Assembly: GCF_008704555.1 (NCBI RefSeq)
Contig: NZ_CP023702.1
Location: 5,556,001 to 5,620,000 of the forward strand
DNA from: Streptomyces nitrosporeus
GTDB lineage: Bacteria; Actinomycetota; Actinomycetes; Streptomycetales; Streptomycetaceae
Length of the DNA: 64,000 nt
Direction: 5' to 3'
This document shows, piece by piece, positions 48,254 to 52,731 of this stretch; position 1 is the first letter of the stretch, and each line of letters starts with the position of its first letter. The notes below the pieces were generated by a model. It saw only the letters and a program-made list of their open reading frames with translations. It was not told the origin of the DNA and searched no databases. The translations under genes were made by a program, and so were the position numbers.

Positions 48254-49470
48254 CCGGGGACGGCCGGCGCCACCTGGTGATCGTCGGCGCCTCCCTGGCC
48301 GGCCTGCGGGCCGCGCAGACCCTGCGCGCGGAGGGCTTCGAGGGTGAACTGACCGTCGTGGGCGCCGAACTCCACGCCCCGTACGACCGGCCACCCCTGT
48401 CCAAGCAGGCGCTCACCGCGCCCGGCGGCCCCCCGGACACGGCACTCCCGGTACCGGACGGCATCCGGGCCCGCTGGCTGCTCGGCCGCCCCGCGGTCGC
48501 CCTCGACCCGCGCGCCGCCACCGTGACCCTGGCGGACGGGACCACGCTGCCCTACGACGGACTGCTCGTCGCGACCGGCGCCGCCCCCCGCCGCCTCCCG
48601 CCGGACCGGGGTGCCCCGCCCCGGCGGGTGTTCACCCTGCGCGACCGCGAGGACGCCCACGCCCTGCGCGCCGAACTCACCCCCGGCAGAAGGCTGCTGG
48701 TCGTCGGCGCGGGTTTCCTGGGAAGCGAGGTGGCCGCCGCGGGCCGGGCCCTGGGCCTGGACGTCACCGTCGTCGAGGCGGGCCGGCTGCCCCTGGAACG
48801 CGTGGCCGGCAGTGCGGTCGGCGCCTTCGTCGCGGACCTGCACAGGACGGCGGGCGCCGACCTCCGGGTGGAGACCACCGCCGAGACGCTCCACTCCGGC
48901 CCCGACGGCGCGCTCACCGGGGCCACCCTCGGCGACGGCACCACCGTGACCGCCGACGTGGCGGTCCTGGCCCTGGGCGCCGTACCGGCCACCGGGTGGC
49001 TGGCCGGCTCCGGGCTGGACGCCGAGGGAGGCGTGCGCTGCGACCGGTGGCTGCGGGCCCTGGACACCGAGGGCCGGGTCGTCCCCGGGGTGTTCGCCGC
49101 CGGGGACGCCGCCAGGGTGCCGCAGCCGCTCGCCGACGGGCAGCCGATGGCCCTCGGCCACTGGAGCGACGCCCTCGACCAGGCGGCCACGGCCGCCCGT
49201 ACCATGCTCACCCCGCACAGCCCGCACGCCCTCGACGCGGTGCCGTCCTTCTGGTCGGACCTCTACGGGGCCAGGATCCGCTCCGTGGGCCTGCCCGGCG
49301 CGGCCGACGAGGCCCGGGTCGTCGAACACGACGCCGTCGCCCGGCGCATGGAGGTCAGCTACCACCGCGAGGGCCGGCTCGTCGGGGCACTGACGGTGGG
49401 GCGCACCGCCCGCCTCGCCGCCTACCGCGAGGAACTGCACCGCCGGAGCACCACGGTACCGGCCGGCTGA
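48250..49470 (+). CDS. NAD(P)H:ferredoxin reductase, FAD dependent
   Basis: 406 residues. The first FAD motif is LVIVGASLAGLRAAQTLR; then APYDRPPLSKQAL; the NAD motif is LLVVGAGFLGSEVAAAGRALG; FAAGDAARVP is the second FAD-binding block. The C-terminal ferredoxin-reductase-like domain includes FWSDLYGARIRSVGL. It matches rhodocoxin/putidaredoxin reductase types. It passes electrons from NAD(P)H to the overlapping ferredoxin. Confidence 0.92.
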   Translation: MTGDGRRHLVIVGASLAGLRAAQTLRAEGFEGELTVVGAELHAPYDRPPLSKQALTAPGGPPDTALPVPDGIRARWLLGRPAVALDPRAATVTLADGTTLPYDGLLVATGAAPRRLPPDRGAPPRRVFTLRDREDAHALRAELTPGRRLLVVGAGFLGSEVAAAGRALGLDVTVVEAGRLPLERVAGSAVGAFVADLHRTAGADLRVETTAETLHSGPDGALTGATLGDGTTVTADVAVLALGAVPATGWLAGSGLDAEGGVRCDRWLRALDTEGRVVPGVFAAGDAARVPQPLADGQPMALGHWSDALDQAATAARTMLTPHSPHALDAVPSFWSDLYGARIRSVGLPGAADEARVVEHDAVARRMEVSYHREGRLVGALTVGRTARLAAYREELHRRSTTVPAG

Positions 49471-49521
49471 GACCGGGCACGGGCCCGCCGCACCACCGCG
49501 GCGGGCCCGCGCCCGCGCGGT

Positions 49522-49607
49522 AACCCGCGCCCCGCGCGTACGGGCGGGACCCGCGACCCACGCGTACGGAGGCGTACGGAGAAGGAACCCGCGCCCCGCG
49601 CGTACGG
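49522..49607. repeat. 22-bp direct repeat and related tandem units
   Basis: An identical 22-bp sequence beginning AACCCGCGCCCCGCGCGTAC lies at 49522-49543 and 49586-49607. The second copy is followed by GGAGAAGGAGCCGCGCCCC, which again resembles the sequence before it. The repeats lie downstream of the reductase gene. Confidence 0.75.
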
Positions 49608-49666
49608 AGAAGGAGCCGCGCCCCGGAGAGCGGGCGGGAAGCGTCCCGTTACGCCCCGCGGGGAGG

Positions 49667-49672
49667 TAAACT
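49667..49672 (+). promoter_or_regulatory. -10 element for a leaderless leader peptide
   Basis: TAAACT (49667-49672) fits the TAnnnT -10 pattern. The ATG of the leader ORF lies 7 bp further on, so the transcript would begin at or next to its start codon. GTTA lies 13-19 bp upstream. I infer a leaderless mRNA. Confidence 0.6.
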
Positions 49673-49679
49673 CCCGCCC

Positions 49680-49754
49680 ATGTCCACCCCCGAGTCCGAC
49701 AGACTCAGGCCGCCGGTCCGCCGGCGGCCGATCCGCGACACCCGGAACCCCTGA
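49680..49754 (+). CDS. 24-residue leader peptide
   Basis: ATG to TGA, 25 codons, beginning MSTPESDRLRPPVRRRPIRD. It is Arg-rich and includes the rare codon pair AGA (8) and AGG (10). It lies 248 bp upstream of the MFS exporter gene. Codons 10-17 form a perfect hairpin and alternative pairings follow. A ribosome paused here by an antibiotic could change the fold and allow read-through. Too short to be proven by composition; the call rests on promoter, position and RNA structures. Confidence 0.6.
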   Translation: MSTPESDRLRPPVRRRPIRDTRNP

Positions 49755-49827
49755 CCCCCAGCGGTCACCGCCGTCGTGTCGCCGGTCGCAGGCCGCCGCC
49801 GGATCCCGCGGCGATGCGGGGGCGGCC
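49708..49827 (+). promoter_or_regulatory. Four-segment attenuator upstream of MFS exporter
   Basis: Segment 1 GGCCGCCGG (49708-49716) pairs with segment 2 CCGGCGGCC (49721-49729) inside the leader ORF. Segment 3 GGCCGCC (49791-49797) pairs with segment 4 GGCGGCC (49821-49827) around an inner CCCGC/GCGGG stem, forming a terminator-like hairpin. Segment 2 is also complementary to segment 3. The 1:2, 2:3 and 3:4 pairings are mutually exclusive, the layout of ribosome-controlled attenuators. Confidence 0.65.
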
Positions 49828-50001
49828 TTCATGCCCGGTCGAGAACGGTCGGCGTACCCCGGCACACAGCCGGAGGACAGCCGACGGGCACCGGCATTCC
49901 GTCGCTCCGCCGTCCCACGCCTCATCGCGTGACGGGCGCGACCCGCATCCCCGCGTACCCCGATCGTTCCCGTCGGTTCCGTACAAGGGGTCTGTTTCCT
50001 C

Positions 50002-51222
50002 ATGGTCCGCACCACTCGTATGCCATTCGCCGTCCACATGCTCGGGCTGGCGGTCTTCGCCCAGGGCACCTCGGAGTTCATGCTCTCCGGCCTGCTCTCG
50101 GGCATCGCCGGCGACCTGGACGTCTCCCTGTCCGCCGCAGGTCTGCTGACCTCCTCCTTCGCGGTCGGAATGGTGGTCGGCGCCCCGCTGACCGCCCTGG
50201 CCGCACGCACCTGGCCCCGGCGGCGGGCCCTGCTGTTCTTCCTGGCGGTCTTCGTCACCGTCCACGTCGTCGGCGCGCTGACGAGCAGTTACGGGGTGCT
50301 GCTCGCGACCCGGGTCGTCGGGGCTCTCGCCAACGCCGGATTCTGGGCGGTGGCGCTGGTCACCGCGACCGCCCTGGCCGGTCCGGAGCGGCGCGCCCGG
50401 GCCACCGCCGTGGTCGTCGGCGGAGTCACCGTCGCCTGCGTGGCGGGCGTGCCGGCCGGAGCGGCGCTCGGTGAACTCTGGGGCTGGCGCGCGGCGTTCT
50501 GGGCGGTCGCCCTGGTCTCCCTGCCGGCGGCGCTCGCCCTGTTCCGGGCGGTTCCCGGCGGGCGGCCCGAGGACGCCGGGAAGGTGGGCGTCCGCGCCGA
50601 GCTCCGTACCCTGGGCCGCCCGCGGCTCCTGCTCACCCTGCTGGTGATGGCCCTGGTCCAGGGCGCCACCTTCTGCGCGTTCTCGTATCTGGAACCGCTG
50701 GTCACCCGGGTCACCGGGTTCGGCGCCGGACGGGTCCCCCTGGTGCTCGCCCTGTTCGGCGCCGGCGCCTTCGCCGGGGTCACCCTGGCCGGGCGGCTGG
50801 CCGACGCCCGCCCGGCCGCCGTCATCGGCACCGGCATGGCGGCGCTGACCGCCGGATGGGCCGCCCTGGCCCTCACCGCCGCCCACCCGGCCGCCGTACT
50901 CGCCCTGGTGCTGCTGCTGGGCGCGCTCGCCTTCGGCACCGGGACCGCGCTGATCACCCGGGTCTTCCATCTGGCCCCCGAGGCCGGGACCCTGGGCGGC
51001 TCCTTCGCCACGGCCGCCTTCAACGTGGGCGCGGCGGTGGGCCCTTGGCTCGGCGGCCTGGCTCTCGGCGCGGAAGCCGGTTACCGCGCCCCGGTCTGGG
51101 TGAGCACCGCTCTGATGGGTGCGGCCCTCGTGCTGGCGGCGGTGCCGGCCGCGGTGACCGCCGGCACCGCACGCGTCCGGGCCGGATTCCCCGACCGGAG
51201 CGAACCGGCGCCCGAACGCTGA
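50002..51222 (+). CDS. MFS exporter, chloramphenicol-resistance (Cml/CmlR) type
   Basis: 406 residues, twelve membrane segments. The N-terminus FAVHMLGLAVFAQGTSEFMLSGLLSGIAGDL and SFAVGMVVGAPLTALAARTWPRR follow the actinobacterial chloramphenicol-efflux family of DHA1 transporters. It probably exports an antibiotic, either foreign or the product of the neighbouring cluster. The gene is preceded by a leader ORF and attenuator, suggesting induction by translation inhibitors. The resistance spectrum is not readable from sequence. Confidence 0.87.
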   Translation: MVRTTRMPFAVHMLGLAVFAQGTSEFMLSGLLSGIAGDLDVSLSAAGLLTSSFAVGMVVGAPLTALAARTWPRRRALLFFLAVFVTVHVVGALTSSYGVLLATRVVGALANAGFWAVALVTATALAGPERRARATAVVVGGVTVACVAGVPAGAALGELWGWRAAFWAVALVSLPAALALFRAVPGGRPEDAGKVGVRAELRTLGRPRLLLTLLVMALVQGATFCAFSYLEPLVTRVTGFGAGRVPLVLALFGAGAFAGVTLAGRLADARPAAVIGTGMAALTAGWAALALTAAHPAAVLALVLLLGALAFGTGTALITRVFHLAPEAGTLGGSFATAAFNVGAAVGPWLGGLALGAEAGYRAPVWVSTALMGAALVLAAVPAAVTAGTARVRAGFPDRSEPAPER

Positions 51223-51388
51223 CGGCGAGGCTCCGGTACGGGCGGGGAGCGAACGGCGGGGCGGGGCGCGGCAGATGGAGCGCGTCCCGCACCGCCGCCC
51301 CCGGCGGGCGGGCGGAGTGACGCGCACATCACACCCCGCCGCAACAGTTCGTTCACCTGCGGGCATAAAACGTCTGAGAGACTTTGTT

Positions 51389-51413
51389 CCGGACAGATAC
51401 ATAACCTGTCCGG
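51389..51413. promoter_or_regulatory. Inverted repeat upstream of second MFS gene
   Basis: CCGGACAG (51389-51396), 9-bp A/T-rich spacer ATACATAAC, CTGTCCGG (51406-51413). The spacer contains TACATA, a possible -10, so a repressor bound to the arms would cover the promoter. This is the only notable element in the 300-bp gap between the two MFS genes; no regulator gene adjoins it. Confidence 0.65.
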
Positions 51414-51522
51414 CATGTGGTCCGGCGACGAAGCCGACGCTCCCGCACGATCCTCCACCTCCGCACGCAGTCGCCCGGCCCGTCACGAGCCGGGTGCCGC
51501 CCCGCCCGAAAGGTCACCCACC

Positions 51523-52731
51523 ATGCCCCTGGCCCTGCTCGCCCTCGCTGTGAGCGCCTTCGGCATCGGCACCACCGAGTTCGTGATGATGGGCCTGCTG
51601 CCCAACGTCGCGGACGATCTGGGAACGTCCGTACCCACCGCCGGATACCTCGTCTCGGCGTACGCGATCGGCGTCGTCCTCGGTGCCCCGCTGCTCACCG
51701 GCCTCGGTTCCAGGATCCCGCGCAAGCGGATGCTCCTGCTGCTGATGGGCCTCTTCACCGTCGGCAACCTCGCCTCCGCCTTCGCGCCCGGCTTCGGCTG
51801 GCTGATGGCCGGGCGGTTCCTGGCCGGTCTGCCGCACGGCGCGTTCTTCGGCGTCGGCGCCGTCGTCGCCGCCCGGCTCGTGCCCCACGGCCGGCAGGCC
51901 CGCGCCGTCGCCACCATGTTCCTCGGCCTCACGGTCGCCAACGTCGTCGGCGTACCGGCCGCCACCCTGCTCGGACAGCACCTCGGATGGCGCGCCACCT
52001 TCATGGTGGTCGCGGTGATCGGCCTCGCCGCGATGGCCGCACTCGCCCGCCTCGTCCCACAGATCCCGGTGGAAGCACGCCAGGACGTACGCCACGAGAT
52101 CCGCGCGCTGGGCAACCGCCAGGTACTGCTCGGCCTGCTGACCGCCGTCCTCGGGTTCGCCGGTGTGTTCGCGGTCTACTCCTACCTCTCGTCCATGACG
52201 ACCGAGGCGATGGGCTTCGGGGAGTCCTCGGTGACGCTGGTCCTCGCCCTCTTCGGCATCGGGATGACGCTCGGCGCACTGGCCGCCGGCCCGCTGACCG
52301 ACCGGGCGCTGCGCCCCACCCTGTACGGCTCGCTGGGAGCCCTGGCCGTCGTCCTGACGGTCTTCCCGTTCGTCGCCGATGTGCGGTGGGCGGCGCTGGT
52401 GGCGGTCGTGCTGCTCGGCGGGGTCGGCTTCATGACGACCACCCCGCTCCAGATGCTGGTGATGAGCAAGGCCCAGGACGCCCCCACCCTGGCCTCCGCC
52501 TCCAACCACTCCGCGTTCAACCTGGCCAACGCGGGCGGTGCCTGGCTCGGCGGGGTGGCCATCGCGGCCGGCTGGGGCTGGACCTCCCCGGCCCTCGTCG
52601 GCGCCGTCCTGGCCGCCGCCGGTCTCGCGGTGGCGGTCACGGCGGGCCTGCTGGACCGTACGCCGGGAACCTCGCGGATCGTCGCGGGCGGCGCGGTGGT
52701 GCGCGAGGAGCAGCGGACCGCCGTGCACTGA
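51523..52731 (+). CDS. MFS transporter, AraJ/DHA1 type
   Basis: 402 residues, twelve membrane segments. Motifs: LALLALAVSAFGIGTTEFVMMGLLPNVADDLG, VVLGAPLLTGLGSRIPRKRML (motif A) and SAYAIGVVLG. It is related to the exporter upstream but of the arabinose-efflux/purine-efflux subgroup. AAAGG precedes ATG 51523. An in-frame ATG at 51415 directly after the inverted repeat could give a 36-residue hydrophilic extension. It is convergent with the Rieske oxygenase gene. Confidence 0.88.
   Translation: MPLALLALAVSAFGIGTTEFVMMGLLPNVADDLGTSVPTAGYLVSAYAIGVVLGAPLLTGLGSRIPRKRMLLLLMGLFTVGNLASAFAPGFGWLMAGRFLAGLPHGAFFGVGAVVAARLVPHGRQARAVATMFLGLTVANVVGVPAATLLGQHLGWRATFMVVAVIGLAAMAALARLVPQIPVEARQDVRHEIRALGNRQVLLGLLTAVLGFAGVFAVYSYLSSMTTEAMGFGESSVTLVLALFGIGMTLGALAAGPLTDRALRPTLYGSLGALAVVLTVFPFVADVRWAALVAVVLLGGVGFMTTTPLQMLVMSKAQDAPTLASASNHSAFNLANAGGAWLGGVAIAAGWGWTSPALVGAVLAAAGLAVAVTAGLLDRTPGTSRIVAGGAVVREEQRTAVH

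What the first reader, a model, noticed from the sequence alone, without database searches (positions are those of the whole stretch)
49667..50001. Leaderless leader peptide plus four-segment attenuator controlling a Cml-type MFS exporter
TAAACT sits 7 bp before the ATG of a 24-codon ORF. Within and after it, four segments allow mutually exclusive pairings 1:2 (9 bp), 2:3 (7 bp) and 3:4 (7 bp plus an inner 5-bp stem). The exporter start is 248 bp downstream. This is the architecture of ribosome-mediated attenuation, expected to switch on the pump when ribosomes stall. AGA and AGG codons before segment 2 could tune pausing.
Basis: partly seen in the sequence, partly recalled or inferred. Interest (0 to 1): 0.8.

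Follow-up and report, generated by a model that had tools for sequence, protein, structure and literature searches.

The report
Chloramphenicol-sensing leader before an exporter
In front of a probable chloramphenicol pump gene lies a tiny, strongly conserved peptide gene that seems to start at the very tip of its message and looks built to make ribosomes stall when the drug is present, so that the pump is made only when needed.

Summary
TAAACT lies 7 nt before a 24-codon ORF, followed by hairpin 1:2 and a Cmx/CmrA-family chloramphenicol exporter (510.7 bits, cut-off 400). The leader is conserved: among exporter homologues found by protein alone it is present at 51 of 51 genus places (one ORF has lost its in-frame start) and intact at 26 of 27 further class-wide loci. 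Core: [M/V]-x-[S/T/C]-P-E-[S/A]-x-[usually R, AGA]. TAnnnT sits 6-8 nt before the start in all 112 leaders measured. Plasmid cmx has MSSPESDR..., Rhodococcus cmrA MSSPKASRL. Residue 6, left free in the first search, is Ser or Ala in 48 of 48, matching the published penultimate-residue rule for phenicol arrest; such arrest would put the ribosome on segment 1. The output step is unsettled. Hairpin 1:2 shows compensation, but full-length folds do not always favour it; 2:3 has no covariation of its own; the refolding switch appears only in the consensus of the window's closest relatives. Long leaders have a covarying helix 4:5; short ones may pair segment 3 with the Shine-Dalgarno. No consensus terminator lies on 3:4. 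The kind is known (cat/cmlA attenuation); leaderless start, peptide core and breadth make a distinct variant. Nothing was tested by experiment.

The parts
49667..49672 (+). TAAACT, -10 element (TAnnnT) 7 nt before the leader start codon
   Evidence: TAnnnT at 6-8 nt in 112 of 112 leaders measured (7 nt in 77)
49680..49754 (+). leader ORF MSTPESDRLRPPVRRRPIRDTRNP*, inferred to be translated from a leaderless mRNA
   Evidence: homologous ORFs
49680..49703 (+). conserved sensor core, codons 1-8 (codon 6 Ser 49695-49697; codon 7 Asp 49698-49700, predicted P site; codon 8 rare AGA 49701-49703, predicted A site)
   Evidence: codon tallies (48 leaders; 26 leaders); penultimate Ala/Ser/Thr rule from PMC8987054 (passages); AGA 22 of 16,289 codons in 40 long ORFs of the window; stall position inferred
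49708..49716 (+). segment 1, GGCCGCCGG (5' arm of hairpin 1:2; predicted to lie under a ribosome arrested at codon 7)
49721..49729 (+). segment 2, CCGGCGGCC (3' arm of hairpin 1:2; possible partner of segment 3)
49791..49802 (+). segment 3, GGCCGCCGCCGG (pairs with 2 in the masked model, with 4 in the free model)
   Evidence: window; consensus of 7 relatives; motif enrichment
49942..49949 (+). segment 5, CCCGCATC, perfect 8-bp complement of GATGCGGG; the two stretches covary among type-A leaders
49985..49990 (+). AAGGGG, likely Shine-Dalgarno of the exporter
   Evidence: AAGGGG, ATGGGG or the like at this place in type-A leaders
50002..51222 (+). Cmx/CmrA-family chloramphenicol efflux MFS transporter (406 aa; the start shared with homologues corresponds to ATG 50020)
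   Evidence: (NF033135 510.7 bits, cut-off 400)

Best explanation
A phenicol-inducible, ribosome-mediated attenuator. RNA polymerase starts at or next to the leader start codon, so the message begins with the ORF itself. Ribosomes read M-S-T-P-E-S-D-R... Without drug they move on, hairpin 1:2 forms, and the exporter's ribosome-binding region stays shut (or transcription is cut short). With a chloramphenicol-type drug on the ribosome, arrest is predicted with Ser/Ala at residue 6 penultimate, codon 7 in the P site and the rare AGA codon 8 in the A site. The arrested ribosome lies over segment 1, hairpin 1:2 cannot form, segment 2 is freed, and the downstream RNA refolds so that the pump is made. 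Shown by sequence: ORF, -10 element, exporter family, peptide conservation with synonymous change, hairpin compensation, covarying 4:5 helix in long leaders. Inferred: leaderless transcription, arrest, inducing drug, the refolding route, and whether the last step is mainly translational (my preference, about 60:40) or transcriptional.
For: Protein-only searches: leader at 51 of 51 genus homologues (50 with an intact ORF) and intact at 26 of 27 further class-wide loci, the usual hairpin alone remaining at the 27th. DNA-pattern scan (biased by its pattern): 78 of 80 loci carry the exporter within 2.2 kb on the same strand; the other 2 loci end within about 170 nt of the leader. Seven of eight more distant MFS paralogues of the own genome were read and none has it. 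In 48 genus leaders residue 6 was left free by the expression and is Ser (27) or Ala (21) in all; in 26 class leaders, where the expression allowed Ser, Ala or Thr, it is Ala 18 and Ser 8. Chloramphenicol and linezolid stall best with Ala, less with Ser/Thr, in the penultimate position (PMC8987054, passages). Codons 4-6 vary synonymously or between Ser and Ala. cmx of C. glutamicum/C. striatum has MSSPESDRSGVVGHTASPLNH, R. qingshengii cmrA MSSPKASRL; all nine plasmid records read (of 23 matched) have such a leader. Hairpin 1:2: one pair A-T 87, G-C 16, G-T 8 of 111; 4 pairs with a double change, reached by 26 of 1000 shuffles (42 of 1000 on the 36 distinct stems). Helix 4:5 in 25 distinct type-A leaders: 83.7% of cells paired against 32-49% when slid; 12 double-change cells, reached by 2 of 2000 permutations. 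46 type-B leaders: segment 3 with own Shine-Dalgarno tail better than permuted, 1 of 5000. Two-step model of 31 type-A leaders: Shine-Dalgarno more open with segment 4 available than blocked, 0.09 against 0.02.
Against: No transcript end, reporter or toeprint. Residues 4 and 5, and AGA in the 48, were fixed by my expressions, so only the recovery rate speaks for them. Segment 2 has no own-versus-other advantage downstream (4479 of 5000); single-leader 2:3 tests reach p <= 0.05 in only 4 of 34 (A), 11 of 58 (B), 1 of 14 (C), tail-helix tests in 2, 6 and 0. Hairpin 1:2 has probability < 0.2 in 26 of 107 full-length folds, 8 of 14 in type C. In the consensus folds the switch is seen for A1 only: A2 and A3 have 4:5 in both states, B2 pairs 2 with 3 in both, C lacks a plain 1:2. 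In one search the percentage paired is reached by 51, further pair types by 661 and double-change pairs by 829 of 2000 permutations. Masking nt 1-36 opens the Shine-Dalgarno only slightly (A 0.03 to 0.10, B 0.14 to 0.19, C 0.08 to 0.08), and masking nt 1-24 does as much in A. Permutations do not remove relatedness. Five of 26 class leaders lack Arg at codon 8 (Lys 3, Thr 1, Glu 1); L027 has Gln; L222 lacks the usual stem; L015 has no in-frame ATG/GTG; R. qingshengii has Lys for Glu at residue 5.
Confidence: 0.78

Rival explanations
1. Same sensor, but the output is transcription attenuation: 3:4 (or another leader hairpin) stops RNA polymerase, without a U-run or through Rho, and 2:3 prevents it.
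For: Long GC-rich 3:4 hairpin in the window and its relatives. Transcriptional attenuation by uORFs is described for Streptomyces lmrC (PMC8546547, passages) and stated for wblC (PMC7157823, passages); some leaderless leader peptides of S. lividans lack a typical terminator (PMC8079986, passages).
Against: No U-rich tract follows 3:4; the only terminator-like consensus site on the + strand overlaps the Shine-Dalgarno at 49975-49992. In the consensus of 16 short type-B1 leaders and in the L082 fold, segment 3 pairs with the Shine-Dalgarno itself.
Confidence: 0.35
2. An amino-acid or rare-codon attenuator: the ribosome pauses at AGA for want of charged tRNA-Arg rather than because of a drug.
For: AGA is rare (22 of 16,289 codons in 40 long ORFs of the window) and is codon 8 in 17 of 26 class leaders, where it was not required.
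Against: A single codon, replaced by AGG, CGC, AAG, ACG, GAG or CAA in some leaders; the target is a drug exporter, not arginine metabolism.
Confidence: 0.06
3. A macrolide-type arrest peptide: the window's Arg-Leu-Arg at residues 8-10 acts like the Arg-Leu-Arg motif of ErmDL.
For: The window peptide contains R-L-R; the ErmDL motif is mentioned in PMC13410324 (passage).
Against: 18 of 48 leaders stop at codon 10 and residue 9 is variable.
Confidence: 0.05
4. The conserved block is a promoter plus an RNA hairpin and the ORF is not translated.
For: Strong conservation of the -10 element and stem; one leader lacks an in-frame start codon (L015).
Against: Codons 4-6 vary at third positions or between Ser and Ala, and the frame from start to codon 8 is kept while the stop position and the stem differ.
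Confidence: 0.06

Closest known systems
Chloramphenicol-inducible translation attenuation of cat genes and the cmlA exporter cassette
   Same: short leader ORF before a phenicol-resistance gene, drug-dependent arrest, alternate stem-loops masking the Shine-Dalgarno (as described in PMC8876359, passages); cmlA, a chloramphenicol-resistance cassette, has a 9-aa leader, as long as the short leaders here
   Different: PMC8876359 gives the cmlA leader ORF a proper translation initiation region; here 3 of 112 leaders show an SD-like motif in the last 15 nt and TAnnnT sits 6-8 nt before the start. The peptides differ; cat-86 MVKTDK and CmlA MSTSKNADK are recalled, not read in a call; their T-D-K and A-D-K resemble S-D-R here.
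Leader of plasmid/transposon cmx (C. striatum pTP10, C. glutamicum pXZ10145) and of Rhodococcus cmrA
   Same: same peptide core, same -10 spacing, same exporter family; 'chloramphenicol resistance leader peptide' is already an annotation name in C. striatum genomes (PMC10486106, one passage)
   Different: cmx uses another stem (GGGGUU...AGCCCC); leader about 166 nt. Older papers on cmx, Rhodococcus cmr and S. lividans cml may describe leaders; those I asked for were not held.
uORF attenuators of Streptomyces lmrC and wblC
   Same: antibiotic-dependent uORF in a Streptomyces 5' region (PMC8546547, passages; PMC7157823, passages)
   Different: other genes; lmrC answers lincosamides, streptogramin A and pleuromutilins and its terminator was shown by experiment
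Leaderless amino-acid leader peptides of S. lividans (leuL, trpL, ilvL, thrL, metL)
   Same: leaderless leader ORFs followed by hairpins (PMC8079986, passages)
   Different: those hold codons of the regulatory amino acid; this core does not, and the target is an exporter

Membership tests
Chloramphenicol-inducible leader-peptide attenuators (cat/cmlA kind) | short ORF upstream of a phenicol-resistance gene, with signs of translation | tested here: met
   exporter passes the NF033135 cut-off; ORF conserved with synonymous change; translation itself not measured
Chloramphenicol-inducible leader-peptide attenuators (cat/cmlA kind) | arrest-prone residue (Ala, Ser or Thr) penultimate to a stall codon beside the 5' arm of the stem | tested here: met
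   residue 6 Ser or Ala in 48 of 48 where it was left free and in 26 of 26 where Ser/Ala/Thr were allowed; rule from PMC8987054 (passages); stall position inferred
Chloramphenicol-inducible leader-peptide attenuators (cat/cmlA kind) | drug-dependent ribosome arrest and induction | not testable with these tools
   needs toeprinting and reporters
Chloramphenicol-inducible leader-peptide attenuators (cat/cmlA kind) | alternate structures that mask or free the Shine-Dalgarno | tested here: inconclusive
   for: A1 and B1 consensus folds, 4:5 covariation, segment 3 with tail; against: A2, A3, B2 and C consensus folds, small modelled effect, weak 2:3
Chloramphenicol-inducible leader-peptide attenuators (cat/cmlA kind) | leader ORF with its own ribosome-binding site (as described for cmlA) | tested here: not met
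   SD-like motif in 3 of 112 leaders; TAnnnT at 6-8 nt in 112 of 112. It may work like this kind without being a cmlA leader.
trp-type transcription attenuator | 3:4 hairpin followed by a U-run | tested here: not met
   no terminator-like site at 49791-49827; one elsewhere at 49975-49992
trp-type transcription attenuator | codons of a regulatory amino acid in the leader | tested here: not met
   core SPE[S/A][D/S]R
Cmx/CmrA chloramphenicol efflux MFS transporters | score above the curated cut-off | tested here: met
   510.7 bits against 400
Curated Rfam, Pfam or NCBIfam leader families | match to a curated model | tested here: not met
   no match at E up to 1 (Rfam, window 49400-50200) or up to 10 (NCBIfam with 4 peptides, Pfam with 3)

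The most novel reading that the evidence does not exclude
A family of phenicol-sensing arrest peptides, conserved through many Actinomycetes genera and carried by the mobile cmx gene, in which the sensor is the first 24 nt of a leaderless message. In long Streptomyces leaders the stall signal is passed on by a relay of exclusive RNA helices (1:2, then 2:3, then 4:5) over about 200 nt to the exporter's ribosome-binding site.
Probability: 0.28. Interest if true: 0.75.

Novelty: new variant of a known kind. Interest (0 to 1): 0.55.

Why it matters
If true, one compact sensor explains drug-dependent control of an exporter family that ranges from soil actinomycetes to transposon-borne cmx in clinical corynebacteria. 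It would be a natural test of the phenicol penultimate-residue rule (Ser/Ala at residue 6), and of whether ribosomes that start on leaderless mRNA arrest in the same way.

Tried and rejected
Rejected: arginine/rare-codon attenuation (codon 8 is replaced in several leaders); macrolide R-x-R arrest (not conserved); untranslated conserved RNA (synonymous pattern); U-run terminator on 3:4.

Led nowhere or weak: single-leader shuffle tests of 2:3 and of Shine-Dalgarno partners; thermodynamic masking; own-versus-other test of segment 2; Rfam, Pfam and NCBIfam models. Rows dropped: of 129 leaders 118 were distinct in their first 130 nt and 112 had a resolved exporter hit, 111 with a start codon; leaders longer than 440-450 nt were left out; the tail test used 46 of 62 type-B leaders, chosen for a good segment-3 match; one search dropped L024 and L028 for want of an anchor, and its anchor for L029 and L031 fell on another site than, both rows being kept. 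The types A, B and C were assigned by a text rule on the last 34 nt and a few leaders may be misfiled (L085 and L168 look like type B). A wide pattern search (0 of 396 genomes) was useless: my pattern had the hairpin one base out of place and missed the window itself. A first script timed out. Literature: ten searches; in their listings and the passages read I saw no description of this leader's mechanism. Only CC-licensed PMC papers are held, so this is no claim that it is unpublished. Four papers asked for by id were not held.

Full report
What is there. The exporter matches the Cmx/CmrA chloramphenicol efflux model NF033135 with 510.7 bits (cut-off 400). The leader folds more stably than all 100 dinucleotide shuffles (z -3.3). 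The combined -10/ORF-core pattern occurs once in the window and in none of 100 shuffles.

Is it conserved? I searched with the exporter protein only, so the leader was not selected for. In the genus, 51 of 199 genomes (the own one included) had a homologue at E <= 1e-120. Upstream of these 51, an expression fixing Pro 4, Glu 5 and AGA 8 but leaving codon 6 free found the leader in 48; the other three, read by eye, have it too: L027 (MSSPEASQR), L084 (VSSPEASRL, AGG) and L015, where no in-frame ATG/GTG start remains. In the class, 36 of 394 genomes had a homologue at E <= 1e-95. Of the 37 places listed, three (L001, L025, L037) were already counted, 27 came as new loci, and seven had no locus and were not examined. 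Of the 27, 26 have the leader; in L243 the usual hairpin remains but the ORF start is gone, apparently through an insertion (my reading, not verified). L222 has the ORF without the usual stem. Of eight more distant MFS paralogues of the window's genome, seven were read and none has such a leader.

78 of 80 loci carry the exporter within 2.2 kb on the same strand; the other two loci end within about 170 nt of the leader. That pattern fixed AGA and the hairpin arm, so it says nothing about their conservation. Two more genus genomes found through leader DNA also have the exporter behind it, at 65% and 54% identity (L090, L091).

Plasmid records extend this to named resistance genes. Of 23 records with the exporter I read nine, and all nine have such a leader: cmx of C. 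glutamicum pXZ10145 and of C. striatum pTP10 has MSSPESDRSGVVGHTASPLNH with TAGAGT 7 nt before the ATG; R. qingshengii cmrA has MSSPKASRL, with Lys for Glu. A 'chloramphenicol resistance leader peptide' is mentioned as an annotation in C. striatum (PMC10486106, passages); I saw no mechanism described in those passages.

Evidence for a translated peptide. In 48 genus leaders codon 4 is CCC, CCT or CCG, codon 5 GAG or GAA, and codon 6, unconstrained, is Ser (27) or Ala (21) with six different codons. In 26 class leaders codon 4 takes all four Pro codons, codon 5 both Glu codons, and codon 6 (Ser, Ala or Thr allowed by the expression) is Ala 18 and Ser 8. Codon 8, free in that set, is AGA 17, AAG 3, AGG 2, CGC 2, ACG 1, GAG 1. 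TAnnnT lies 6-8 nt before the start in 112 of 112 distinct leaders measured, and an SD-like motif within 15 nt of the start in only 3; this is what a leaderless mRNA would show. AGA is 22 of 16,289 codons in 40 long ORFs of the window.

Why phenicols. PMC8987054 (passages) states that chloramphenicol and linezolid arrest ribosomes best with Ala, less with Ser or Thr, in the penultimate position of the nascent chain. With residue 6 penultimate, codon 7 is in the P site and codon 8 in the A site. From my own knowledge, not from a call, the cat-86 (MVKTD-K) and CmlA (...NAD-K) leaders arrest at Thr-Asp|Lys and Ala-Asp|Lys; Ser-Asp|Arg here is alike. A ribosome there would reach about nt 35 of the leader (recalled footprint), over segment 1 (nt 29-37).

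RNA structure, for. In 111 leaders one pair of hairpin 1:2 is A-T 87, G-C 16, G-T 8, another C-G instead of G-C in one leader; four pairs have a double change against 3.0 in shuffles (reached by 26 of 1000; 42 of 1000 on the 36 distinct stems). In Cmx-type leaders (L234-L236, L239, L241, L242, L244 and cmx) a different stem, GGGGCU...AGCCCC or close to it, stands at the same place. RNAalifold on the window and six relatives (A1) gives 1:2 + 3:4 when free and 2:3 + 4:5 when nt 1-36 are masked, and the window alone folds with 3:4 free and 2:3 masked. In 32 type-A leaders (25 distinct) helix 4:5 pairs 83.7% of cells, against 32-49% when slid by 1-3, with 12 double-change cells against a permuted mean of 5.6 (2 of 2000 reach it). 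In 46 of 62 type-B leaders, segment 3 pairs better with its own Shine-Dalgarno tail than with permuted ones (1 of 5000). A segment-3-like motif CNCCGGAYC is in 43 of 111 leaders against 4.2 expected (A 25 of 34, B 18 of 62, C 0 of 15).

RNA structure, against. Segment 2 pairs no better with its own downstream region than with others' (4479 of 5000 permutations as good), though it hardly varies. Single-leader tests of 2:3 and of the tail helix are mostly not significant. In one search the percentage paired is reached by 51, further pair types by 661 and double-change pairs by 829 of 2000 permutations. In full-length folds 1:2 has a probability below 0.2 in 26 of 107 leaders (8 of 14 in type C) and above 0.8 in 65; in the window it is 0.52. 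The consensus folds of A2 and A3 have 4:5 in both states, that of B2 pairs 2 with 3 in both, and C shows no plain 1:2. Modelled opening of the Shine-Dalgarno on masking is small, equals that of a shorter mask in type A, and is absent in type C. Permutations do not remove relatedness. I therefore hold the sensor half firmly and the output half loosely.

Mechanism and verdict. I commit to phenicol-dependent arrest at codon 7 of a leaderless leader ORF, which prevents hairpin 1:2 and lets the leader refold to express the exporter; I favour a translational output, with a transcriptional one as the main rival. The kind, drug-inducible leader-peptide attenuation of cat and cmlA, is known (PMC8876359, passages). 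Streptomyces uORF attenuators (PMC8546547, passages) and leaderless amino-acid leader peptides (PMC8079986, passages) are known too. The combination here, a leaderless conserved SPE[S/A] core across Actinomycetes and on mobile cmx, I did not see in the listings and passages of my ten paper searches, which cover only CC-licensed PMC text. S. coelicolor cmlR2 is listed in the WblC regulon (PMC7157823, passages), so a second level of control is possible for such exporters; I did not test whether cmlR2 has this leader.

Noticed in passing
window 51388-51520: Second MFS gene (51520-52731, or 51415-52731 with a 35-aa extension): TAACCT 51402-51407 lies 7 nt before ATG 51415, within an inverted repeat CCGGACAG...CTGTCCGG that looks like a repressor operator.
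   Followed up: no
L243 (class-wide locus): The usual exporter-leader hairpin is present but ORF start and -10 are replaced by other sequence, apparently an insertion element (not verified).
   Followed up: partly
L015: A genus leader with hairpin, -10 and exporter kept but no in-frame ATG/GTG start for the peptide.
   Followed up: partly
window 49686-49690 with 49987-49991: In the minimum-energy fold of 49680-50001 ACCCC of leader codons 3-4 pairs with GGGGU at the exporter's Shine-Dalgarno, so a ribosome merely starting on the leader might open it; masking nt 1-24 alone has as much effect as nt 1-36 in type-A leaders.
   Followed up: partly
L218 (P. aeruginosa plasmid) and L219 (Dietzia plasmid): cmx copies on plasmids of other bacteria, the Pseudomonas one beside sul1, carry the same leader peptide as the corynebacterial ones.
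   Followed up: partly
segment 3 of several leaders, e.g. L075, L110, L138: The segment-3 motif CCGGATCACC resembles the 3' end of 16S rRNA (GGATCACCTCC, recalled), which may reflect anti-Shine-Dalgarno mimicry.
   Followed up: no
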